DNA of 64,000 bases from Ramlibacter sp. (GCF_029866045.1 NZ_JARXAB010000027.1:1-64000); one strand, 5' to 3'. Numbered from the stretch's first letter, positions 52,995 to 64,000 are shown. The notes: generated from the sequence alone by a model not told the origin. Translations and numbers: made by a program.

Positions 52995-53774
52995 TTAGAC
53001 CAGCCCCCAGTAGGACCCGCCGTCGAGTTGCAGGTTTTGCCCGGTCATGAAGCCGGCGTTGGCGCTGCACAGATAGGCGCAGGCCTGGCCAAACTCCTCC
53101 GGCCGGCCCAGGCGCCGGGCCGGTAGCGTGTCGGCAATCTTCTGGCGCGCTTCCTCACGCCCGATCCCCAGCTCTCGCATCATGCGCTGGGCCATGAACT
53201 CTTGCCGCGGCGTGTCAAAGCGCTCGGGCAACAGGTTGTTCAGGGTCACGTTGTCGACGATGGCTTCGCGCGCCAAGGCCCGGGTGAGAGCGGTGAGGCC
53301 CGCGCGGGCAGCTGTCGACAGGCCCATGGCGGCATGCGGCGTCTTGACCATCGCCGAGGTGATGTTCACCACCCGGCCGAACCTGCGCTCGCGCATGCCA
53401 GGCAGCACCGCTCGCAGGATCAGGGCCGCTGCGAGGAGGTTGCTCTCTAGTGCACCCATCCAGGCGGCATGGTCCCAATCGGCCAATTGCCCAGGCGGTG
53501 GGCCGGCGTTGTTGTTCACGAGAATGTCTGGCGCCGGGCATGCGGCGAGCAGCGCGGCTCGGCCCGCCTCGGTGTTGATGTCGGCTGGGACTCCGGTGAC
53601 CCTTGCACCAGTTGCTTCTCGCAGGGTCCGCACGGCGGCCTGTAATTTGCCCTCATCACGGCCGTTGATGAAGATCTCGCAGCCCTCCTCGGCCAGGGCC
53701 AAGGCGCAGGCGTAACCCAGGCCCTGGGAGGAGGCGCAAATGAGGGCCTTGCGCCCCTTGATGCCGAGGTCCAT
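52995..53774 (-). CDS. SDR family oxidoreductase
   Basis: MDLGIKGRKALICASSQGLGYACALALAEEGCEIFINGR; NNNAGPPPG; FMTGQNLQLDGGSYWGLV. Confidence 0.93.
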   Translation of the reverse strand: MDLGIKGRKALICASSQGLGYACALALAEEGCEIFINGRDEGKLQAAVRTLREATGARVTGVPADINTEAGRAALLAACPAPDILVNNNAGPPPGQLADWDHAAWMGALESNLLAAALILRAVLPGMRERRFGRVVNITSAMVKTPHAAMGLSTAARAGLTALTRALAREAIVDNVTLNNLLPERFDTPRQEFMAQRMMRELGIGREEARQKIADTLPARRLGRPEEFGQACAYLCSANAGFMTGQNLQLDGGSYWGLV

Positions 53775-53790
53775 GCTGTTTCCTGTTTGC

Positions 53791-55158
53791 TTAAAGGGTG
53801 GGCTCAGTCGTCTGCGAGACGGCCAGATCGGCAAAGCAACGCCCCTCGGCCGCCAGCTTCTCCAAGAGGGGCGCTGGCTGCCACCACGCGCCGTGCTCGG
53901 CGTGCAAGCGACGGATATCGGCGAGAACTTGCGCCAGGCCGATTCGGTCGGCCAAGTACATCGGCCCTCCCTGGTGGGCAGGAAAGCCGTAGCCGGTGAG
54001 GTAGGTGATGTCGATGTCACCAGGGCGCAGGGCGATGCCTTGCTCGAGCAATCGCGCCCCCTCGTTGACCATCCCGTACAGGCAGCGCTTGAGGATTTCG
54101 GTTTCGTCCATCGGCCGGCGGGTGATGCCCATGCGCGCAGACTCCTCCACGATGAAGCGCTCAATTTCCGGGTCACGCCGAGGGGTGCGGTCGCCCGACT
54201 CGTAGCGGTACCAACCCCGTCCGCTTTTTTGGCCGAAGCGGCCCATGTCGCACAGTTTGAGGATCAGGTCGTTCCAGCGCCGGTCCTTGGCACGGGTGGC
54301 CATCTGGGCCTTGCGGGTCTGCCAACCCACGTCATTGCCGGCCATGTCGTGCACCGCAAAGATGCCCATGGCGTAGCCAAAGCGGGTGAGGGCGGCGTCC
54401 ACTTCGTGTGGCAGGGCGCCGTCTTCCACCAAGAAGTGCGCCTCGCGGTTGTATTGCCGGAAAAGGGCGTTGCCGATGAAGCCCGGGTAGATGCGGGCCA
54501 GCACCGAGGTCTTGCCCATTCGCCGGCCCAGGTCCATCAGGGTGGCAATGACGTCAGGCGCAGTTTTCGCGGCCCTCACCACCTCGAGCAGCTTCATCAC
54601 GTGCGCGGGGCTGAAAAAATGCGCGCCCACGACGTCCTGGGGCCGCTTCGTGACCGCAGCGATCTGGTCGATGTCCAGCCCCGAGGTGTTGGTCGCCAAG
54701 ATGGCGCCGGGGCGGGCGAGGGTGTCAAGCTGCCGGAAGATGTCTTGCTTGAGGCCCAGGTCTTCGAAGACGGCTTCGATCACCAGGTCGGCAGGGGCCA
54801 CGGCGGCCATCTCCAGCGAACCGGTGATGAGGGCCAGGCGCTCGGTCATGGTGGCCGCGTCCAACTTGCCGCGCTTCACACTGGTGGCGTAGTTGTCCCG
54901 GATCTTGGCCAGGCCCTTGTCCAGTCCCTGTGCGCTGGCGTCGATCAGCGTGACCGGAACGCCGATATTGGCCAGGGCCATGGCGATGCCCCCGCCCATG
55001 GTGCCAGCGCCGATGACAGCCACCTGGCGCAGGGGCCGAAGCGCTGTTTCCGCAGGGATGTCCGGGACGCGGGTGGCTGCGGCGGCGCAGCGCTTGGCAT
55101 GGGCGGCGGCGCGGGCGCGATCTTCGTCGCTGACCTGGAAGAAGTTGAAGTCGCTCAT
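53791..55158 (-). CDS. 3-hydroxyacyl-CoA dehydrogenase family protein
   Basis: RQVAVIGAGTMGGGIAMALANIGVPVTLIDAS; GAHFFSPAHVMKLLEVV; GFIGNALFRQYNREAHFLVEDGA. Confidence 0.93.
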   Translation of the reverse strand: MSDFNFFQVSDEDRARAAAHAKRCAAAATRVPDIPAETALRPLRQVAVIGAGTMGGGIAMALANIGVPVTLIDASAQGLDKGLAKIRDNYATSVKRGKLDAATMTERLALITGSLEMAAVAPADLVIEAVFEDLGLKQDIFRQLDTLARPGAILATNTSGLDIDQIAAVTKRPQDVVGAHFFSPAHVMKLLEVVRAAKTAPDVIATLMDLGRRMGKTSVLARIYPGFIGNALFRQYNREAHFLVEDGALPHEVDAALTRFGYAMGIFAVHDMAGNDVGWQTRKAQMATRAKDRRWNDLILKLCDMGRFGQKSGRGWYRYESGDRTPRRDPEIERFIVEESARMGITRRPMDETEILKRCLYGMVNEGARLLEQGIALRPGDIDITYLTGYGFPAHQGGPMYLADRIGLAQVLADIRRLHAEHGAWWQPAPLLEKLAAEGRCFADLAVSQTTEPTL

Positions 55159-55166
55159 GCTGCGGT

Positions 55167-55958
55167 TCAACCCTGGTTTTCCTGCAGCCGTTTGGCCTTG
55201 CCGTCGACGAATTCACGCAGGCGGGCTTCGGCTTCGGGCGGACGAGCACGGTTGGAATTGAGCTGTTCGACAAACAGGCCATCGTCGTGCGACATGTCCT
55301 GGATGCGCGGGAGGACGTTGATGATCATCCAATTGGTCTCGACACTGTTCTTGGCGATACGCTGAGCCAGCTCGGTGGCCTTGGCCAGGGCCTGGCCGGC
55401 GGGCACCACGTAGCGCACGACATGTTCTTGCAGGCCCTCGGCCGGGGTGAGCAGTCGGCCGGTGAGCATCATGTCCATCATCACGGTGGTTCCCACCACG
55501 CGCTGGATGCGGACTGTGCCGCCGCCACCAACGAAGATGCCGCGTTGGCCCTCAGGCAGGCCGAACAGCGCTGTTTCGTCGCAGACCCTCACATGCGCAG
55601 CCGTGGCCAATTCGAGGCCACCGCCCACCACCGCGCCGTGCAGCGCGGCGACGAAGGGAATCGGACCGCGGGCGATCAGGTCAAACACCTCATGCCAGTT
55701 GTGGCGACGACGCTTGCGCGGGGGCTTGATCTGACCCGTGGCGCGGGCGAGGGCCTCCGCCAGGTCGAGCCCAGAGCAAAAATTGGTGCCGTGCCCATGC
55801 AGCACCGCCACGTCGGCCTCATCATGGGCCCGCAGCACCGCCGCGCGCAGGGCGTCGACGAGCGGATCGTTGATGGCGTTGCGCTTGTCAGGGCGGTTCA
55901 GGCCAATGAAGGCGACATTGCCTTCAAGGGCGTAGGTAATCAGATTGTCTTCGCGCAT
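55167..55958 (-). CDS. Enoyl-CoA hydratase/isomerase (crotonase)
   Basis: VAFIGLNRPDKRNAINDPLVDAL; NFCSGLDL; ALHGAVVGGGLELATAAHVRV. Confidence 0.92.
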   Translation of the reverse strand: MREDNLITYALEGNVAFIGLNRPDKRNAINDPLVDALRAAVLRAHDEADVAVLHGHGTNFCSGLDLAEALARATGQIKPPRKRRRHNWHEVFDLIARGPIPFVAALHGAVVGGGLELATAAHVRVCDETALFGLPEGQRGIFVGGGGTVRIQRVVGTTVMMDMMLTGRLLTPAEGLQEHVVRYVVPAGQALAKATELAQRIAKNSVETNWMIINVLPRIQDMSHDDGLFVEQLNSNRARPPEAEARLREFVDGKAKRLQENQG

Positions 55959-55978
55959 GGGTGGGGGGGTTGGGGAAA

Positions 55979-57259
55979 TCAAAGATCGAGCTTGTCCATC
56001 GGCTCGATGGCCACGCCGGTGGCCGCTTGGTGGGCTTGCTGCACCCATTCGGGCTGCCCGGCGTGGAAGATGAAATGCCGCAGGAGCCGGGCCCATTTGG
56101 GGTGCCGCCGGTAGTCGACCAAGGGTAGACCCTTCATGAAAAAGTCGCGCGAGTCGGAGGGCAGGAAGACCCGCTGGTTGGCGTCGGGGTTGCGTAGGAC
56201 CCCCTTGGGGTCACGACCGGCCTGCACCGCCTCGATGTCCTCAAACAACTGCCTGCGCAGCATCGCAATGCCACGGTCGCTGGCACCCAGGTTTTCGCGC
56301 GTGCGGTCGGCAATACGGCCCTGACCGACCCAGGCGACGATGTCTTGGTTGAGGATATGGCTGGTGATCCATCGGCCATCTTCGCCGCGAATCGGGGCGT
56401 GCCAGGTTGGAATGCTCGTCTGCGCAAAGGGCTCAGCCTCGCGCGGCACGCGCAGGAAGGACCAAGTCACGCTCAAGGTGTTCTCGTCGTCCACAGGGAC
56501 GCGCCACTCGAAATGGTCGCCCAGAAAGAAGCCGTTGGGCCAGAGGCAGACCCGGCCGATGGTCCACAGCGGGTTGTTCTCGCCGCTGTCCTCGGTGATG
56601 CGCTTGTAAATGAAGCCGTGCTCGAACTCTTCGAAGGCCAGCTGGAGGTGGGTCGGCGCATAGCTGCCCATGTGCCCGCGCAGGCGCCGGCTCCAGTTGG
56701 CGTGCATCCACTCGAAGTGAACCGGGTCGATCGAATTCTCCTGCGCCTGCAGCCAGTTGCAGGGCACCTCCGCGAACACCGACTGAACGAAGCCGTTCTC
56801 CCAGTGAAAGGGCTCCCAGTCGGGTAGCTCCGGTGCGGGCTGCGGCCCGAGGTAGGCCCAGAGCAGACCCGCCATGGGGCGTACCGGGTAGGCCTTGAGA
56901 CGGGTGCGCTGGCGGAGTTTGCCTGCCGGGTCGACCTGGTCTTCATAAGGCTGGGCGATGCACCCACCTTGGTGGTCATATTGCCAGCCGTGGTAATTGC
57001 AGCGAAGTCCGCGCTCCTCCACGAAACCGTAGGAGAGGTCGGCACGCCGGTGGGCGCAGAAGCGATCCACCAGGCCGTAGTGGCCACCCAGATCGCGGTA
57101 AAGCACCAGGTCTTCGCCGAGCAGGCGCACCGGCTTGACCGGATTGCGCGCGAGTTCGTCGATGCCGGCGATCGGGTGCCAGTGCCGCCGCAGCACCTCG
57201 CCCATCGGCGTACCCGGACCGACCCGGGTCAGGGCCTCGTTCTTTTCAGGGGTGAGCAC
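55979..57259 (-). CDS. Rieske 2Fe-2S aromatic ring-hydroxylating oxygenase, alpha subunit
   Basis: CAHRRADLSYGFVEERGLRCNYHGW Rieske motif; DPVHFEWMH mononuclear-iron motif. Confidence 0.92.
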   Translation of the reverse strand: MLTPEKNEALTRVGPGTPMGEVLRRHWHPIAGIDELARNPVKPVRLLGEDLVLYRDLGGHYGLVDRFCAHRRADLSYGFVEERGLRCNYHGWQYDHQGGCIAQPYEDQVDPAGKLRQRTRLKAYPVRPMAGLLWAYLGPQPAPELPDWEPFHWENGFVQSVFAEVPCNWLQAQENSIDPVHFEWMHANWSRRLRGHMGSYAPTHLQLAFEEFEHGFIYKRITEDSGENNPLWTIGRVCLWPNGFFLGDHFEWRVPVDDENTLSVTWSFLRVPREAEPFAQTSIPTWHAPIRGEDGRWITSHILNQDIVAWVGQGRIADRTRENLGASDRGIAMLRRQLFEDIEAVQAGRDPKGVLRNPDANQRVFLPSDSRDFFMKGLPLVDYRRHPKWARLLRHFIFHAGQPEWVQQAHQAATGVAIEPMDKLDL

Positions 57260-57293
57260 GGGTGGGCCGTCTGTGGTCTCAAAAGTGACGAGC

Positions 57294-58280
57294 TTATTCG
57301 CCCTTGAAGCCGGAGGCCTTGATGATCGGGTCCCAGTGGGCGAGCTCGGCGCGTTGCATCACGTCAAGCTCCGCGGCATTGCGGAACAGGGGCTGGGCCC
57401 ACAGGCGTTCGGTCATGACCTGCTTGACATCCGCCATCTGCAAGATGTCGCGGATCGCGTTTTGCATGCGGGTGACGTCGCCAGCGGGCGTGCCCGCCTT
57501 GGCCCACATGCCGGTCCAGCCCTCACCGGAGGTGACGTTGATACCCTGTTCGGCGAATGTCGGGATGTCGGGCATGAGTGGCGAGCGCTCCTTGGTGAAC
57601 ACGCCAATTACCTTGATCTTGCCGGCCCGGTGGTGGGTCATCATGCCGTCCAGCAGGCTGATGGCCGAGGGCAGGTGGCCGCCGACCAGATCGGTCACCA
57701 TCGGGGGCGAGCCCTTGTACGGAGCCAGTTGCAGGTCCACGCCGATGGTCTTGGCCAGTTGCACGCCCAGGAAGTGGTTCTGACCGCCAGCGCCCGGGGT
57801 GCCAAAGCTGGCCTTGCTCGGGTTCTTGCGGCACCACTCGACAAATTCACGGGCGTTGCTGGCGCCGGTGTTCAGGGCCACGCCCATGCCCAGGGGGTAG
57901 GAGGCGAAGCTGGCGACGGGTGCGAAGTCCTTGGTGATGTTCCATTTGAGCTGGTCGCGAAACACCAGCATCTGGAAGGTGGGAGTGGCATTGGGTGCCA
58001 CCATGAAGGACAGGCCGTCGGCTGGCGCCGCCAGGAGTGCATCAGCCGCAATGCGCCCGCCCACGCCAACCGGGTTGGTCACGATCACCGGCTGGCCCAG
58101 GATGGCCGGCAGGCGGTCGGTGATCAAGCGCGCGATCGCGTCAGTGGCACCGCCGGTGGGAAATCCCACCAGCACCTTGATCGGGGGCTTTTGCGCGCGG
58201 GCGATGCGAGGCAAGCCCATGGCCAGGGCTGCGCCCGTGGCACCGGCGCTGGCGAGAAGGTTGCGACGATTGAGGGTCAT
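57294..58280 (-). CDS. Bug/TctC-type substrate-binding protein
   Basis: PIKVLVGFPTGGATDAIARLITDRLPAILGQPVIVTNPVGVGGRIAADALLAAPADGLSFMV. Confidence 0.9.
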   Translation of the reverse strand: MTLNRRNLLASAGATGAALAMGLPRIARAQKPPIKVLVGFPTGGATDAIARLITDRLPAILGQPVIVTNPVGVGGRIAADALLAAPADGLSFMVAPNATPTFQMLVFRDQLKWNITKDFAPVASFASYPLGMGVALNTGASNAREFVEWCRKNPSKASFGTPGAGGQNHFLGVQLAKTIGVDLQLAPYKGSPPMVTDLVGGHLPSAISLLDGMMTHHRAGKIKVIGVFTKERSPLMPDIPTFAEQGINVTSGEGWTGMWAKAGTPAGDVTRMQNAIRDILQMADVKQVMTERLWAQPLFRNAAELDVMQRAELAHWDPIIKASGFKGE

Positions 58281-58357
58281 GTCTGTCTCCTGTGTCTTTC
58301 GTCCAAGGGGGGCCGCCTCTGCGCGCGGCTTGTCTCAGGGGTTGGGGGGCGGGGGCG

Positions 58358-59626
58358 TCAGGACGTGGCGGCGCGCGCTGGTGCGACAGCCGGTGCATCG
58401 GCCAGGGTGCGCCAATCGGTGCCGGCGGGCATCACGCCACCGACCGAGCGGATGGTTCGATAGTTGAGGTCGGGATGGTGGGCCAAGGTGGGCGCCTTGC
58501 CCTCCATGTGCTCGCGGGCCGCACGCATCAGGAGCTGGCGCACCCGGATCACCGCACCGTCCGCAGAGCAGAGTTGCTCAGTGGTGCGGTCGTAGATCGG
58601 GCCCTGGCTGATGAACATGGCGAAGTCCTCGGTACCCAGGTGCTGCGGAAAGCCCGTCTGGTGGCCACGCTTCATCAGGTCGCGGTTCTGGCCCCAGTTG
58701 TCCTTGGCCTCGCCCGGCGGCAGTGGCGGGAAATTCCACACGTCGGGCGTGGCCGACATCACGGTCATGCCCAGGGGGCGATGGGTGTTGTACTGCACGA
58801 ACCAGCCGCGGTGGGTCAGGTCGTCGATCGGCACCGAGAAGAACACCGTGGTGGGGCTGGTGGCGTCGGGCGGGCAGATGATGCCGTACCAAGGCATCAC
58901 AAAGTTATTGATGCGGGCGTAGACCTTGTCGTCGGGCAGCTGGCGCAAGGCGGCGTAGCGGTAGCCATAGGGCTGGTCCTCGAATTCCATCTTGGGCGCC
59001 AGGGCCTTGGTCATGAGCAGGCGCTCGTTGCCGCCTCCCGCAGTGATCTGGGTGGTGGATTCGTGCAGCACGCCCACGTGGGAGGAGTCCATCGAGGCCT
59101 CCACCGCCTGCACCCAGTTGGTGGGCACCTCGGCGCTGGTGACAGAGCGCTGGCTCGCCGGCAGGTCCATGAAGGGCAGGTCGGGGAAGGGAGGCGGGGT
59201 CTCGCCTTTACCCAGCCAGACCCAGACGATGCCGCCGCGGTCCGCCACGCTGTAGCGGTTGACGCGCACATGCTTGCAAAAGGCGTCTTGGTCGCCGGTG
59301 TGGTTGGGGGCCTCGATCAACTCGCCCCGGGCGTTGAACTTCCATCCGTGGTAGATGCAGCGGATGCCGTTGTGCTCGTTTCGACCCAGGGCCAGCGAGG
59401 CCTTGCGGTGGGCGCACTGCTCGTCGAGCACGGCAGCGGTGCCGTCGGTCGTACGAAAGGCGATGTAGTTGGTGCCAAGCAGGCGGATCCGCACCGGCGC
59501 GCCGTCGGCTTCGAGCTTGATACTGGGTACGGCAGGCAGCCAGTAATGCTGGCGGATCATCTCGCCCATGGGCGCGCCATTTTCGACGCGTGTCAGCAGC
59601 TCGTTTTCTTCCTTCGTCAAGGGCAT
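58358..59626 (-). CDS. Rieske 2Fe-2S oxygenase alpha subunit (phthalate 4,5-dioxygenase-like)
   Basis: CAHRKASLALGRNEHNGIRCIYHGWKFNARGE; DSSHVGVLH iron motif. Confidence 0.92.
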   Translation of the reverse strand: MPLTKEENELLTRVENGAPMGEMIRQHYWLPAVPSIKLEADGAPVRIRLLGTNYIAFRTTDGTAAVLDEQCAHRKASLALGRNEHNGIRCIYHGWKFNARGELIEAPNHTGDQDAFCKHVRVNRYSVADRGGIVWVWLGKGETPPPFPDLPFMDLPASQRSVTSAEVPTNWVQAVEASMDSSHVGVLHESTTQITAGGGNERLLMTKALAPKMEFEDQPYGYRYAALRQLPDDKVYARINNFVMPWYGIICPPDATSPTTVFFSVPIDDLTHRGWFVQYNTHRPLGMTVMSATPDVWNFPPLPPGEAKDNWGQNRDLMKRGHQTGFPQHLGTEDFAMFISQGPIYDRTTEQLCSADGAVIRVRQLLMRAAREHMEGKAPTLAHHPDLNYRTIRSVGGVMPAGTDWRTLADAPAVAPARAATS

Positions 59627-59639
59627 GGCGCGCTCCCGT

Positions 59640-60638
59640 TCAACCCGCGTAGTTCTTGAAGGCGCGGGTGTAGAGCCGCTGGCAGTTGCACTCGAAGATG
59701 TCGCGCTTTTGCGCCTCGGTCAACCAGTCGATGCTCTCGATCACCGGCTTCATGTCGTCGTAGTCGCGGCCGCTGATCGGGTCGCGGGCGCTACCCGTGC
59801 CAGGTTTTTCGGTTCCGAACAGCACGTTGTCGGTGCCAGCCACCTTGCACAGGAGCTCGATCGCCTCCTTGCTGTAGTTGCAAGTGTCGAAGTAGAGCTT
59901 GCGCAGCTGTTCGTCAAAGGTCTCCTTGTCACCCTTGCGCACGGTCCAGGAGCGAAAGCGTCCCATCTGGTAGGGAATCGCGCCGCCCGCATGGGCGACG
60001 ACGATCTTGAGGTCGGGGAAGGTGTCAAAGGTCTTGGCGCCCAGCAGCGAGATGACCGCGATGCTCTCTTCGTTGATGAACTTGAGCGTGTAGGACTCGC
60101 GGGCGCTGCAGCTGCCGGCCGAATGAATGAGGCCTGGCACGTCCAGTTCGGTCATCGCCTGGTACAGGGGATGCCAGAAGGGGTCGCCCAGACCGGGCGG
60201 GTCGCCCTGGCCTTCGGTCGGGTCCGGGTTGATCAGGCAGCCCACAAACCCCAGTTGCTCGACGCAGCGACGCAACTCGGGAATGGCACGCTCCTCCAGC
60301 GCCTCGTCCATGTACTGGGGCAGGCCGGCGACGCCGCGGAAGCGGTCGGGGAACATCTCGACAAACCGGGCGATCAGGTCATTGCAGTGCCGGGACCAGA
60401 GCTCGGTCACCTTGCCGGGCTTGACCGAATGCATCTGCAGGTAAGGACGCGGGGAGATGAATTGAATGTCGGTGCCGACCTCGTCCATGCTCTTGACCAG
60501 CTCCTCGGCCACCTTGCGCACCGCGGCCTCGGGGATCTTGGGCAGGGTGTGCGGGTTGGCGCGTCCGCCGACCAGTTCCGCCATGAAGCGGAAGCTCTCG
60601 GGCGGCATGACGATGTGGGCGTGGGAGTCGATGATCAT
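59640..60638 (-). CDS. Amidohydrolase family protein (ACMSD/decarboxylase-like)
   Basis: MIIDSHAHIVMPPE; FPDLKIVVAHAGGAIPYQMGR; FGTEKPGT. Confidence 0.88.
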   Translation of the reverse strand: MIIDSHAHIVMPPESFRFMAELVGGRANPHTLPKIPEAAVRKVAEELVKSMDEVGTDIQFISPRPYLQMHSVKPGKVTELWSRHCNDLIARFVEMFPDRFRGVAGLPQYMDEALEERAIPELRRCVEQLGFVGCLINPDPTEGQGDPPGLGDPFWHPLYQAMTELDVPGLIHSAGSCSARESYTLKFINEESIAVISLLGAKTFDTFPDLKIVVAHAGGAIPYQMGRFRSWTVRKGDKETFDEQLRKLYFDTCNYSKEAIELLCKVAGTDNVLFGTEKPGTGSARDPISGRDYDDMKPVIESIDWLTEAQKRDIFECNCQRLYTRAFKNYAG

Positions 60639-60711
60639 GAACCGTTGTCTCTCTTGTTGGGTCGTGGGGCGGTCGAATGTAAAAGGGGGGCGAGCGGGAA
60701 AGCCGATGGGC

Positions 60712-61104
60712 TCAGCCCTGCACGTAGGCCAAAGCTTCAATCTGCAGCCACATGCCGTGCTGCAAGGCCTGCACGGTGATGTGGCGGGCGGGGCGATCGG
60801 CCGGGTCCGGGAACAGGGCCAGCCAGTGTGGGTTGACGGCCTCGCGCACCGACTCGTCGCCAATGGTCACGGCCAGCTTGACGACGTCGGCCAAGCTGGC
60901 GCCGCCGCCGGCGAGCACGGCCTGCAAATTGATGAAGGCGTTCGCGGCTTGGCTGGCCGCATCAGCCGGCAAGGCTCCGGTGACGGGGTCCTTGCCGTTG
61001 ACGGCAGAGGTGGCGAGCAGTGGGCCAACGCGGGCAGCCGCGGGAATGGGCGCTTTGTGCGAGCCGCCGGCGACATGGATGGAGCGGGGAGGGCGTGTGG
61101 TCAT
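60712..61104 (-). CDS. RidA family (YjgF/YER057c/UK114) protein
   Basis: NAFINLQAVLAGGGASLADVVKLAVTIGDESVREAVNPHWLALFPDPADRPARHITVQALQHGMWLQIEALAYV; conserved Arg and Glu retained. Confidence 0.88.
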   Translation of the reverse strand: MTTRPPRSIHVAGGSHKAPIPAAARVGPLLATSAVNGKDPVTGALPADAASQAANAFINLQAVLAGGGASLADVVKLAVTIGDESVREAVNPHWLALFPDPADRPARHITVQALQHGMWLQIEALAYVQG

Positions 61105-61116
61105 GGGGTCAGGCCA

Positions 61117-61875
61117 TCAGGGCAGGGGCCGGCTGTCGGGCTCGGCCTCGAACAAATGCATGGGGATGCTGGCCAGAAACTCAGAAAAGCCGGTGGAGCC
61201 CGAGGGCACATGCAGCAGCATTTCCCGCGCAGCGGCGGCCTCGTCGCCGTCCTGAATGGCACGGGCGACCTTACGGTGGTCCTGCAGCGACTGATTGATC
61301 TGGGCCTTGGTGACAAAGTCACGCAGGCGATAGCGGTGGATCTGCCGGCGCGCGTTGCGAATCAGGTCGGCGAGGTAGGGGTTTCGGCAGCCGCGGTAGA
61401 TGACGTCATGGAAGCGGGCGTTGGCCTGGGCGTATTCCTCGGTGCCGCCTTCCACGGCGGCGTCCTGGCAGCCTTGCAGCGCCTCGTCGATGGCGCGGCG
61501 CAGGTCGTCGTCGACCCGGCGCGCGGCCATCTTGGCGCAGGTGGCTTCTAGCTCACCAATGCCTTCCATGATGGCGCGCAGCTGGCTGATGGACAGGCGG
61601 GAGACGGTCACACCCTGGCGCGGCGCAATGCGCACCAGGTTGCGAGCGGCCAGCTGTTGCAGCGCCTCGCGCACCGGGGTACGTGAGACCTGGAAGCGGA
61701 CAGCGAGCTGCCGCTCGTCGAGCGGGCAGCCCGGCGGCAGCTTGCCCGCCTCGATCTCCTCCTGGAGGGCGGCCCGGATTTCGTTGGCGCGGCCGCCGCG
61801 CGGGCGACCGTCCTCGATGCCGAGGAGCGCCTCGGCATCGGTTTCGGGCGCGGAAAGGGTGGCGGTGGATTCCAT
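61117..61875 (-). CDS. GntR family transcriptional regulator (FadR/FCD-like)
   Basis: GKLPPGCPLDERQLAVRFQVSRTPVREALQQLAARNLVRIAPRQGVTVSRLS plus helical FCD-like C-terminus. Confidence 0.92.
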   Translation of the reverse strand: MESTATLSAPETDAEALLGIEDGRPRGGRANEIRAALQEEIEAGKLPPGCPLDERQLAVRFQVSRTPVREALQQLAARNLVRIAPRQGVTVSRLSISQLRAIMEGIGELEATCAKMAARRVDDDLRRAIDEALQGCQDAAVEGGTEEYAQANARFHDVIYRGCRNPYLADLIRNARRQIHRYRLRDFVTKAQINQSLQDHRKVARAIQDGDEAAAAREMLLHVPSGSTGFSEFLASIPMHLFEAEPDSRPLP

Positions 61876-61902
61876 CGCGGCAAATATACATTGAGTTACC
61901 TG

Positions 61903-62039
61903 TGGTATGCAATCTTAATTTCCGGAGCCGCCACCGATTCGCGTAAACCCTTATTTCACAGGCATTAACGCTCAGGGATAACCCGACAAAGCGCCAAATA
62001 GTGAGATCTGGTGTTTTATTTAGCCCCTTTTGTATGCCA
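61903..62039. promoter_or_regulatory. Paired candidate GntR operators
   Basis: TGGTATGCAA (61903-61912) and TTGTATGCCA (62030-62039; reverse complement TGGCATACAA), inverted copies of TGGYATRCAA in the divergent intergenic region. Confidence 0.5.
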
Positions 62040-62087
62040 GAATTGCCGGAAACAAAAACGAACGTCCGACGCGAAAGGTAGTCCTGC

Positions 62088-64000
62088 ATGTCCGCTTCCG
62101 CCCCGGCCCTCCAGCGACCGCCTCTGCCCCTCGGCCGCATCCTGCGGCCTCATTCCGTCGCCATCGTGGGCGCGTCTGCCGACCCGCGCGCCTTTGGCGG
62201 CTTCGTGCAGGGCAACCTCGAACGCTTTGGCTACGACGGTGCCTTGCACCTGGTCAGCCGCAGCAGCACCGAGATCAATGGCCGTCCGTGCGTGAAGACG
62301 GTGGACGAACTGCCCCAGGACCTGGACCTGGCCGTGCTGGCCATTCCCGAAGCGGGCGTGATCGACGCGCTGCGATCGCTGGCCGCCCGGCGCTGCCACT
62401 CGGCCTTGCTGTTTGCCTCGGGGTATGCCGAGGCGGGTGAGGCGGGCCAAGCCCGCCAGCGTGAACTGGCCGAGGTGGCCGCCGCCTGCGGCATTCACCT
62501 CATCGGCCCGAACTGCATGGGCTTCACCCATCTCGCCGCCGGCATTCCCCTGACCTTCGAACCACTGGCCGCGCGCCCACGCGAGCAGCGGCCGGGCGTG
62601 GGCATCGTGGCCCAGAGCGGCTTCATGGCCGCCAACCTGCGCGACTCGCTGGTGTCGCGCGGGGTGCCGGTGGCCGTGGTCTTTTCGACCGGCAACGAGG
62701 TGGATATTTGCGTCGAGGACGTGATGGCCGCCTACCTGGACGACCCGCAAATTCGTGTGCTGACCGTCTACGCGGAGCAGATTCGCCACCCGGCGCTGTT
62801 TCAGCAACTGGCCGCACGCGCCCGCGCCGCCGGCAAGCCGGTGGTGCTGCTCATGCCCGGGCGCAGCGCCCGCGCCCGTGAGGCCGCGCAGTCTCACACC
62901 GGCGCCCTGGCCGGCGACCATGCCACCGCCGCCACGCTGCTGCGACGCGAAGCGGTGGTGCTGGTCGAATCGCTCGACGAGCTGCTGGACACCACCGCCG
63001 TCTTGCTGCGCTTTCCGCAGCCGCCAGCGGGCGGTACCGCCTTCATGACGGGCTCGGGTGCGATGAAGAACCTCGCGCTCGATTTCGCCGACGACCTGGG
63101 CCTGGACCTGCCGGCGCTAGGCACCGCGGTCACCGCCAAGCTTCGCGCGCTGCTGCCCGATTACGCGGTGGCGGAAAACCCGCTGGACTACACCACCATC
63201 AGCGTGCGCAACCCCGGCATCGTGGGCGAATTGATGCTCACCATGCTCGAGGACCCGGGTATTGGCAGCCTGGTGCTGGCCATTCCGGTCGGCCCCGTCG
63301 TGGCGCAGAAGGACAAGGCCGAACACATCGTGCCGGCCTTCGCCCATGCCAACAAGCCGGCGGTGCTGGTGCTGACTGGGGACGGCAGCCCCATCGAGCC
63401 CTTTTTCACCGAGGCGATCGAAGCCAGTGGCGTACCCTTGTTCCGCTCCGCTGACCGGGCGCTGCGCGCGCTTCAGCGCGTGGCGGCCTACGGCGAAGCG
63501 CTGGCCCGCGCTGGACGCGCCCGACCGGTGGCCCGGGAGGCACTTGCGCTGCCGGGGCCTGTGCCCGCCAACGGCATCTTCGCCGAGTACCAGGGCAAGG
63601 ACTGGCTGCGTCAGGCCGGCCTGGCCGCGCCGCCGGGGCGGCTGGCCCAGAGCGCCGACGAGGCGGTGGAGGTGGCCCGCGAGATTGGCTTTCCCGTGGT
63701 GCTCAAGGCTCAGGCCAGCGAGCTGCCGCACAAGAGTGATGTGGGGGGTGTGCTGGTCGGCCTGGCCGACGAAGCCGCGCTTCGCGCCGGCTGGGAGCAG
63801 CTGCACGCCAGCGTCGCCCACCACCGCCCGGGGCTGGCGCTGGACGGCGCCCTGGTTGAGGCCATGGGGGCACGCGGACTCGAACTGGTGGTCGGCGCCA
63901 AGCGAGATGCCGACTGGGGCCCAGTGGTGCTGGTTGGCCTGGGCGGCATCTGGATCGAGGCCTTGCACGACGTGCGCCTCATTCCGGTGGACATGGCCGA
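62088..64000 (+). CDS. Acetate-CoA ligase (ADP-forming)-like / acyl-CoA synthetase, truncated by window end
   Basis: Open reading frame without stop to window end: MSASAPALQRPPLPLGRILRPHSVAIVGASADPRAFGGFV...GIVAQSGFMAANL...REAAQSHTGALAGDH...VVLKAQASELPHKSDVGGVLVGL (CoA-binding plus ATP-grasp). Confidence 0.9.
   Translation, partial: MSASAPALQRPPLPLGRILRPHSVAIVGASADPRAFGGFVQGNLERFGYDGALHLVSRSSTEINGRPCVKTVDELPQDLDLAVLAIPEAGVIDALRSLAARRCHSALLFASGYAEAGEAGQARQRELAEVAAACGIHLIGPNCMGFTHLAAGIPLTFEPLAARPREQRPGVGIVAQSGFMAANLRDSLVSRGVPVAVVFSTGNEVDICVEDVMAAYLDDPQIRVLTVYAEQIRHPALFQQLAARARAAGKPVVLLMPGRSARAREAAQSHTGALAGDHATAATLLRREAVVLVESLDELLDTTAVLLRFPQPPAGGTAFMTGSGAMKNLALDFADDLGLDLPALGTAVTAKLRALLPDYAVAENPLDYTTISVRNPGIVGELMLTMLEDPGIGSLVLAIPVGPVVAQKDKAEHIVPAFAHANKPAVLVLTGDGSPIEPFFTEAIEASGVPLFRSADRALRALQRVAAYGEALARAGRARPVAREALALPGPVPANGIFAEYQGKDWLRQAGLAAPPGRLAQSADEAVEVAREIGFPVVLKAQASELPHKSDVGGVLVGLADEAALRAGWEQLHASVAHHRPGLALDGALVEAMGARGLELVVGAKRDADWGPVVLVGLGGIWIEALHDVRLIPVDMA

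What the first reader, a model, noticed from the sequence alone, without database searches (positions are those of the whole stretch)
52995..64000. Candidate uncharacterised aromatic (possibly N-containing) catabolic cluster with two Rieske oxygenases, ACMSD-like amidohydrolase and RidA
Sequence: nine tightly packed minus-strand genes (GntR, RidA, amidohydrolase, Rieske alpha, Bug, Rieske alpha, crotonase, 3-hydroxyacyl-CoA dehydrogenase, SDR) with a divergent ADP-forming acyl-CoA synthetase. Knowledge: phthalate-dioxygenase-type Rieske alpha subunits act on aromatic acids; ACMSD-family amidohydrolases decarboxylate or hydrolyse ring-cleavage products; RidA proteins hydrolyse imines/enamines, and 2-aminomuconate deaminases belong to that family. 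Inference: uptake by Bug, ring hydroxylation, decarboxylation or deamination, then CoA activation and beta-oxidation-like steps. I do not recognise this gene combination as a described pathway.
Basis: partly seen in the sequence, partly recalled or inferred. Interest (0 to 1): 0.72.

Follow-up and report, generated by a model that had tools for sequence, protein, structure and literature searches.

The report
LigY-type aromatic-acid breakdown gene cluster
This is a large, conserved and probably co-regulated set of bacterial genes that looks built to break down a side-chain-bearing aromatic compound, probably lignin-derived, by a variant of the LigZ/LigY ring-opening route that includes an unusual RidA protein and three aldolase-like proteins; its substrate is unknown.

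Summary
The genes are real and in the order described.

The "ACMSD-like" amidohydrolase is LigY-like, a C-C hydrolase of ring-cleavage products, by sequence, tree, model and active-site residues. A core module (LigY-like hydrolase, LigZ-like dioxygenase, RraA1-3, RidA, an oxygenase) recurs in 32 other clusters that lack the CoA genes. The whole cluster is conserved at 44 loci, mostly Burkholderiales, with a matched GntR operator palindrome in 40 of 41 divergent promoters.

Best reading: oxygenation or O-demethylation to a 3-substituted 4,5-dihydroxybenzoate, LigZ-type cleavage, LigY-type hydrolysis to an acid plus a carboxy-hydroxypentadienoate, then RraA (and RidA?) to pyruvate; the CoA genes beta-oxidise a side chain. 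Substrate and reaction order are inferred. A nitrogen substrate is not supported. The module's RidA keeps Arg105 but has Gln for Glu120, unlike all eight described Rid subfamilies, so it may do something other than imine hydrolysis. New variant of a known kind.

The parts
52995..53774 (-). SDR oxidoreductase, 259 aa (accessory: found at 17 of 44 orthologous loci)
53791..55158 (-). 3-hydroxyacyl-CoA dehydrogenase, 455 aa
   Evidence: PF02737 and PF00725; conserved at 42/44 loci
55167..55958 (-). crotonase / enoyl-CoA hydratase, 263 aa (PRK08150 subfamily, above cut-off)
   Evidence: 359.9 bits, cut-off 232; 42/44 loci
55979..57259 (-). Rieske oxygenase alpha subunit B, 426 aa (phthalate dioxygenase-like; optional)
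   Evidence: 24/44 loci; relatives next to the LigZ/LigY-type pair in many small clusters
57294..58280 (-). Bug/TctC periplasmic solute-binding protein, 328 aa
   Evidence: PF03401
58358..59626 (-). Rieske oxygenase alpha subunit A, 422 aa (LigXa/phthalate dioxygenase-like; core)
   Evidence: PF00355 + PF19301 LigXa_C; PDB 7fjl, 7fhr, 9ina; 44/44 loci
59640..60638 (-). LigY-like amidohydrolase (predicted C-C hydrolase of the ring-cleavage product), 332 aa
60712..61104 (-). RidA-fold protein, 130 aa, with Arg105-His106 and Gln at position 120 (Glu in the described Rid subfamilies)
   Evidence: PMC4433059
61117..61875 (-). GntR/FCD regulator, 252 aa
   Evidence: PF00392 + PF07729; 42/44 loci
61903..61912 (.). 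predicted GntR operator (TKGYATRCMA palindrome), regulator side
   Evidence: one of only two matches in the 64-kb window; motif in 40/41 orthologous divergent promoters
62030..62039 (.). predicted GntR operator (TKGYATRCMA palindrome), acyl-CoA synthetase side
62088..64000 (+). ADP-forming acyl-CoA synthetase, 716 aa, cut by the window (ends at contig position 64238); first gene of the plus arm, which continues past the window: ACADs, Bug, GMC, ALDH, thiolase, OB-fold protein, CaiB, LigZ-type dioxygenase, RraA1-3, to contig position about 76779

Best explanation
A divergent, GntR-controlled catabolic cluster for an aromatic compound that carries, or is first converted to carry, a ring carboxylate, an ortho-dihydroxy pair and a further substituent R: a 3-R-4,5-dihydroxybenzoate. 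Inferred steps: Bug-dependent uptake; oxidation of a terminal alcohol (GMC oxidoreductase, aldehyde dehydrogenase); CoA activation (ADP-forming synthetase) and beta-oxidation of a C3-type side chain down to the ring carboxylate (two ACADs, crotonase, HCDH, thiolase/OB, CaiB CoA transfer); Rieske O-demethylation or hydroxylation to the catechol; LigZ-type extradiol cleavage; LigY-type hydrolysis of the cleavage product to R-COOH plus 4-carboxy-2-hydroxypenta-2,4-dienoate (CHPD); and conversion of CHPD by the RraA proteins, perhaps helped by RidA, through 4-hydroxy-4-methyl-2-oxoglutarate to pyruvate. Shown by sequence: the gene set, its conservation, the LigY and LigZ kinship with retained LigY active-site residues, and the shared operator. 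Inferred: every reaction, the substrate, and the order of side-chain and ring steps. My confidence in the LigZ/LigY-type core is about 0.65; that the side chain is oxidised before ring cleavage, about 0.4.
For: LigY is the nearest solved protein by sequence and by predicted fold (TM 0.89). All nine LigY positions checked are kept; LigJ differs at two of them. In the tree the protein sits on the LigY side of the LigJ branch. A LigZ/LigB-family dioxygenase lies in the plus arm; it is 39% identical to the LigZ-type protein beside this genome's LigY orthologue, and a relative's model matches LigAB/DesB. The core module recurs without the CoA genes: dioxygenase 28/32, RraA1 26, RraA2 26, RraA3 22, RidA 25, Rieske 27 of 32 loci, with P450s or flavin enzymes in place of Rieske on some plasmids. 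RraA1-3 form three clades across modules with aldolase-type R-D motifs (essential Arg in PMC5065237). One operator motif in 40/41 divergent promoters ties both arms. Three further plus arms end in dioxygenase-RraA1-2-3.
Against: No enzyme has been assayed and R is unknown. The hydrolase is only about 43% identical to LigY and forms its own subclade. True LigY/LigZ neighbourhoods seen here (L088, L104) have no RidA. RraA2-like proteins occur in 14 of 300 order genomes, of which only 2 hold the hydrolase at the threshold used, so RraA2 is not exclusive to the module. The thiolase/OB pair occurs in many other contexts and does not show where beta-oxidation acts. The window's own cluster has no Rieske reductase; the nearest in the genome is 53% identical and sits beside another Rieske gene.
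Confidence: 0.6

Rival explanations
1. R is an alkyl or alicyclic chain: the LigY-like hydrolase releases R-COOH, and the CoA synthetase, ACADs, crotonase, HCDH and thiolase then beta-oxidise that acid (analogous to the hydrolase and CoA-ligase steps of 9,10-seco-steroid or p-cumate degradation).
For: The CoA genes are specific to this big cluster and nearly absent from the 32 small clusters with the same core, as expected if they serve a particular R. The OB-fold protein next to a thiolase recalls steroid and ibuprofen CoA pathways (my knowledge).
Against: GMC and aldehyde dehydrogenase fit a terminal alcohol on the starting compound at least as well; no gene for the remaining steps of a ring-fused acid was seen; the thiolase/OB pair is widespread in unrelated contexts.
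Confidence: 0.25
2. A syringyl-type monomer pathway: R is methoxy or hydroxy. Syringate-like acids are demethylated to 3-O-methylgallate or gallate; the dioxygenase acts like DesZ; the hydrolase removes a methyl ester or hydrates 4-oxalomesaconate; an RraA protein is the CHA aldolase.
For: RraA3 passes the curated CHA-aldolase cut-off (192.8 against 179 bits). LigJ is the second-nearest relative of the hydrolase. Rieske O-demethylases are common and small clusters carry only oxygenase, dioxygenase, hydrolase and RraA.
Against: The hydrolase keeps the LigY Tyr190 and Arg187 that LigJ lacks, and this genome has a separate LigJ with a LigK-like aldolase on C73. It does not explain three RraA clades or RidA.
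Confidence: 0.2
3. Two independently useful operons that happen to be adjacent: a ring-cleavage operon and a general CoA/beta-oxidation operon for different substrates.
For: The core module exists without the CoA genes in 32 loci; the thiolase/OB pair exists elsewhere.
Against: The dioxygenase and RraA genes lie at the end of the CoA arm while the hydrolase and RidA lie in the other arm, so the core itself is split across both; the arrangement is conserved at 44 loci with shared operators.
Confidence: 0.1
4. One reading: degradation of an amino- or nitro-aromatic, with RidA as a 2-aminomuconate-type deaminase and the amidohydrolase as an ACMSD-type decarboxylase.
For: RidA keeps Arg105, the residue essential for imine hydrolysis (PMC4433059); 2-aminomuconate deaminase AmnE belongs to the Rid family (PMC6742747); class III dioxygenases include 2-aminophenol dioxygenases (fold hits).
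Against: The amidohydrolase is LigY-like. No other nitrogen-handling gene is present. The RidA has Gln for Glu120 and a new invariant His106.
Confidence: 0.05

Closest known systems
5,5'-dehydrodivanillate (DDVA) pathway of Sphingobium sp. SYK-6: LigXacd, LigZ, LigY, LigW
   Same: LigXa-like Rieske oxygenase, LigZ-type class III dioxygenase and LigY-type hydrolase in one cluster; a ring carboxylate is implied.
   Different: Hydrolase about 43% identical to LigY; RidA, three RraA, CoA/beta-oxidation genes and Bug transport are added; separate LigXc/LigXd components not seen, and no LigW-type decarboxylase in the cluster.
Protocatechuate 4,5-cleavage / gallate pathway (LigAB or DesB, LigJ, LigK)
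   Same: Class III dioxygenase, amidohydrolase-superfamily enzyme, RraA-fold aldolase.
   Different: The hydrolase is not LigJ (lacks its pattern; a separate LigJ/LigK pair exists in the genome); no LigC or LigI in the cluster; three RraA proteins rather than one.
Phthalate dioxygenase-type Rieske systems (PDB 7fjl, 7fhr)
   Same: Both Rieske subunits are nearest to these among solved structures; relatives of the cluster carry a one-component reductase gene with a 2Fe-2S motif.
   Different: The two window proteins are 28% identical to each other and not close to the solved enzymes; the reductase gene is absent from the window.
RidA/Rid family imine deaminases
   Same: Fold, size, Arg105.
   Different: Tyr17 to Ile, Ser106 to His (invariant), Glu120 to Gln (nearly invariant) in about 80 module copies.

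Membership tests
LigY (meta-cleavage compound C-C hydrolase) | closest by sequence to LigY rather than LigJ or ACMSD | tested here: met
   270 / 223 / 72 bits
LigY (meta-cleavage compound C-C hydrolase) | metal and catalytic residues H6, H8, R72, H179, Y190, H223, R234, E282 (roles recalled from the LigY structure paper, which is not in the library) | tested here: met
   all aligned residues identical; LigJ lacks Y190
LigY (meta-cleavage compound C-C hydrolase) | orthologue of SYK-6 LigY | tested here: not met
   43% identity and a separate subclade; this genome has a closer one on C61 (66%)
LigY (meta-cleavage compound C-C hydrolase) | hydrolyses a C-C bond of a ring-cleavage product | not testable with these tools
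   needs enzyme assay
ACMSD | nearest relative is ACMSD | tested here: not met
LigJ (4-oxalomesaconate hydratase) | groups with LigJ in a tree | tested here: not met
   LigJ and this genome's own LigJ form a separate branch, 100/99
Class III (LigB/LigZ-type) extradiol dioxygenase | LigB domain, LigAB-like fold, conserved active-site His12 | tested here: met
   PF02900; a relative's model best hit LigAB; His12 invariant in that family. The LigAB second-His position seems to read Gln here and in the LigZ-type protein of C61
DDVA pathway | LigXa + separate LigXc ferredoxin + LigXd reductase | tested here: not met
   no reductase or separate ferredoxin in the window cluster; relatives have one ~323-aa reductase with a C-terminal 2Fe-2S motif
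DDVA pathway | 5-carboxyvanillate decarboxylase LigW in the cluster | tested here: not met
   not among the genes of window 52995-64000 or L009; not searched genome-wide
RidA-type imine deaminase | Arg105 | tested here: met
   invariant in module copies
RidA-type imine deaminase | Glu120, kept in all eight described subfamilies (PMC4433059) | tested here: not met
   Gln in 80 of 80 aligned module copies; replacement of this Glu by Ala had little effect in Salmonella RidA (PMC4433059), so activity is not excluded
RidA-type imine deaminase | imine hydrolysis | not testable with these tools
   needs enzyme assay
HMG/CHA aldolase (RraA fold) | catalytic Arg-Asp pair in G/D-X20-R-D motif (motif form recalled; Arg123/Asp124 roles in PMC5065237) | tested here: met
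   RraA1 G-X20-RD-X2-E, RraA2 D-X20-RD, RraA3 E-X20-RD (conservative change)
Phthalate dioxygenase/LigXa-type Rieske alpha subunit | Rieske CxH-X17-CxxH and D-x2-H-x4-H iron site | tested here: met
Phthalate dioxygenase/LigXa-type Rieske alpha subunit | placement in a tree of characterised Rieske oxygenases | not tested
   no named reference set beyond solved structures was available

The most novel reading that the evidence does not exclude
The module's RidA-fold protein is not an imine deaminase but an enol/keto tautomerase or isomerase (Arg105 clamps a carboxylate; invariant His106 takes over acid-base work from the lost Glu120), and together with three specialised RraA proteins it forms a dedicated route for 4-carboxy-2-hydroxypenta-2,4-dienoate, whose catabolic genes I did not find named in the papers read. 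This would be a non-nitrogen function for the Rid fold.
Probability: 0.25. Interest if true: 0.75.

Novelty: new variant of a known kind. Interest (0 to 1): 0.55.

Why it matters
LigZ/LigY-type ring opening is known from few organisms, mainly for the lignin 5-5 dimer DDVA. A 44-locus cluster and 32 simpler clusters sharing the same core suggest that this chemistry is used on several substrates across Alpha-, Beta- and Gammaproteobacteria and Actinomycetota. The module gives concrete candidate genes (RraA1-3, RidA) for what happens to CHPD after LigY, a step for which the papers read here name no genes, and a RidA clade with a changed active site to test. If the substrate is lignin-derived, the genes would be useful parts for lignin conversion.

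Tried and rejected
ACMSD assignment: rejected on sequence, tree and fold. LigJ/gallate-type hydratase: demoted because of the LigY residues and the separate LigJ/LigK pair in the genome. Using the thiolase/OB pair to identify the substrate: relatives occur in many unrelated contexts, uninformative. RraA2 as an exclusive marker of the module: rejected; 14 of 300 order genomes have a close relative but only 3 have the hydrolase, 2 of them shared. Sigma-70 and terminator scans found nothing above chance. Literature searches for the gene combination returned no matching operon; the LigY structure paper is not held. No tree of the Rieske subunits against characterised oxygenases could be built: beyond solved structures no named reference sequences were on hand.
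Full report
Observation. The ten genes are present, intact and in the reported order. The window is G000:C127:1-64000 of a draft genome of 3.85 Mb; the contig is 80994 bases long. Its nearest relatives are MAGs named Comamonadaceae and Ramlibacter, and Ramlibacter aurantiacus appears to be one of the same-genus genomes. The gene set is patchy: 8 of 119 relatives searched, the own genome included, hold the hydrolase at E <= 1e-100, all within the genus, so it is accessory.

The cluster is larger than the window shows. Past position 64000 the plus arm continues (contig coordinates): acyl-CoA synthetase to 64238, two acyl-CoA dehydrogenases, Bug, GMC oxidoreductase (67657-69270), aldehyde dehydrogenase (69326-70810), thiolase (about 70842-72059), OB-fold protein (to 72456), CaiB-family CoA-transferase (72453-73700), class III extradiol dioxygenase (73716-74717) and three RraA-fold proteins (74767-76779).

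Identity of the amidohydrolase. PDB search gives LigY 270 bits, LigJ 223, gamma-resorcylate decarboxylase 77, ACMSD 72. Aligned to LigY it keeps H6, H8, R72, H179, R187, Y190, H223, R234 and E282, as do nearly all relatives examined; the two LigJ references and this genome's own LigJ differ at 187 and 190. Residue roles are from my knowledge of the LigY work; that paper is not held. A tree places it with relatives in a clade (99/96) next to a clade holding LigY (97/92), apart from LigJ (100/99); the far outgroup is a long branch, so the exact root is uncertain. The AlphaFold model (mean pLDDT 81.6) matches LigY best (TM 0.89), LigJ next (E-values about two orders weaker, TM 0.85-0.90), ACMSD at 0.73.

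Core module. Of 76 loci fetched by the hydrolase, 44 carry the big cluster and 32 carry only a small one. In the small ones a LigZ/LigB-type dioxygenase is found at 28, RraA1 at 26, RraA2 at 26, RraA3 at 22, RidA at 25 and a Rieske protein at 27, while the CoA synthetase is at 0, GntR at 1, thiolase at 1, crotonase and HCDH at 2. In most big loci the fetched flank stops before the dioxygenase; it is visible in 4 of them, and in the three plus arms fetched further (L107-L109) the dioxygenase and RraA1-3 are all present. By comparison the genome has only 7 RidA-family and 5 RraA-family genes in 3.85 Mb, 3 of the RraA genes being in this cluster. Plasmid copies pair the module with P450s (Bradyrhizobium), a flavin-dependent oxidoreductase (Rhodococcus koreensis) or, in Polymorphobacter, a LigY-type and LigZ-type pair followed by RraA1-3 with no RidA. 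pNL1 has hydrolase-RidA-RraA-RraA next to a Rieske pair. So the oxygenase varies and the cleavage/hydrolysis/aldolase part stays.

RraA and RidA. Three RraA types form three single clades over module copies from several classes, each with the Arg-Asp pair essential for aldolase activity in the HMG/CHA aldolase (PMC5065237). RraA2-like proteins also exist without the hydrolase, so the trio is not exclusive. The module RidA keeps Arg105, has His at 106 in all 81 aligned copies, Gln at 120 in 80 of 80, and Ile at 17 (wider set). According to PMC4433059 all eight Rid subfamilies keep the glutamate and Rid3 has the Ile; the same paper notes that replacing the glutamate by alanine had little effect in Salmonella RidA. 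Changed specificity is therefore a hypothesis, not a result.

Rieske proteins and electron supply. Both have intact iron sites and are nearest to phthalate dioxygenase-type structures; they are only 28% identical to each other. Rieske A is at 44/44 big loci, Rieske B at 24/44, and a ~323-aa reductase with a C-terminal 2Fe-2S motif at 37/44. The window and its close relatives L010, L011 and L016 lack the reductase; the nearest in the genome is 53% identical and lies beside another Rieske gene on C104.

Regulation. The 10-base palindrome TKGYATRCMA occurs exactly twice in the 64-kb window, both in the GntR/synthetase divergent promoter (two or more matches arose in 25 of 100 shuffles, so the count alone is weak). 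It occurs in 40 of 41 orthologous promoters, 116 both-strand matches (58 places) against 0.44 expected in shuffled promoters. The motif was read off these promoters and they are related by descent, so this shows conservation rather than independent tests. It supports one regulator for both arms.

Mechanism. Known for DDVA in SYK-6: Rieske O-demethylation (LigXacd), LigZ cleavage, LigY hydrolysis to 5-carboxyvanillate and CHPD (PMC6874591; PMC8019502). By analogy the core here opens a 3-substituted 4,5-dihydroxybenzoate and releases R-COOH plus CHPD; hydration of CHPD would give 4-hydroxy-4-methyl-2-oxoglutarate, the substrate of HMG aldolase, hence pyruvate (chemistry: my inference). PMC6874591 states that SYK-6 seemed to use CHPD and names no genes for it in the passages read. 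The CoA arm either makes the ring carboxylate from a longer side chain (preferred, about 0.4) or degrades R-COOH (0.25). GMC and aldehyde dehydrogenase, seen in this cluster and four others, suggest a terminal alcohol in part of the family. A lignin-derived substrate is plausible but unproven.

Verdict. A real, conserved, probably co-regulated catabolic cluster; a new variant of the LigZ/LigY kind with an unassigned substrate. The nitrogen-aromatic and ACMSD readings are not supported. Main limits: no biochemical data, substrate unknown, Rieske phylogeny not done, literature restricted to open-access PMC.

Noticed in passing
L104 (own contig C61), 2948-5024: A separate LigZ-type (347 aa) and LigY-type (66% to SYK-6 LigY) pair with Bug, a PobA-type flavin hydroxylase, a 542-aa flavin monooxygenase and a LysR regulator: a second pathway of the same kind in this genome.
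   Followed up: partly
window 55959-55978 versus L013 14728-15699: The Rieske reductase gene present at 37 of 44 relatives is missing between Rieske B and crotonase in the window and in L010, L011 and L016.
   Followed up: yes
L089 (plasmid pNL1) 8001-10833: Hydrolase, RidA and two RraA-type genes (one annotated 'diguanylate cyclase') sit beside a Rieske alpha/beta pair on the well-known aromatic plasmid pNL1.
   Followed up: no
L067 (Burkholderia sp. H160): The module lies beside BphC-type dioxygenase, HsaA-like acyl-CoA dehydrogenase-fold and alpha/beta hydrolase genes, suggesting a substrate with a second ring.
   Followed up: no
L037 (Acidocella aquatica): An alphaproteobacterium carries the big cluster inside the Burkholderiales group, pointing to horizontal transfer; GntR and RidA were not detected there.
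   Followed up: no
L123-L125 (order genomes): Related RidA proteins in genomes without the hydrolase at the threshold used: two keep Glu at position 120, one has Gln.
   Followed up: partly
L009 13717-14718 and L104 2948-3991: The LigZ-type dioxygenases read GDDQ/GNDQ where LigAB seems to have its second iron-ligand His; the metal ligands of this family deserve checking.
   Followed up: no
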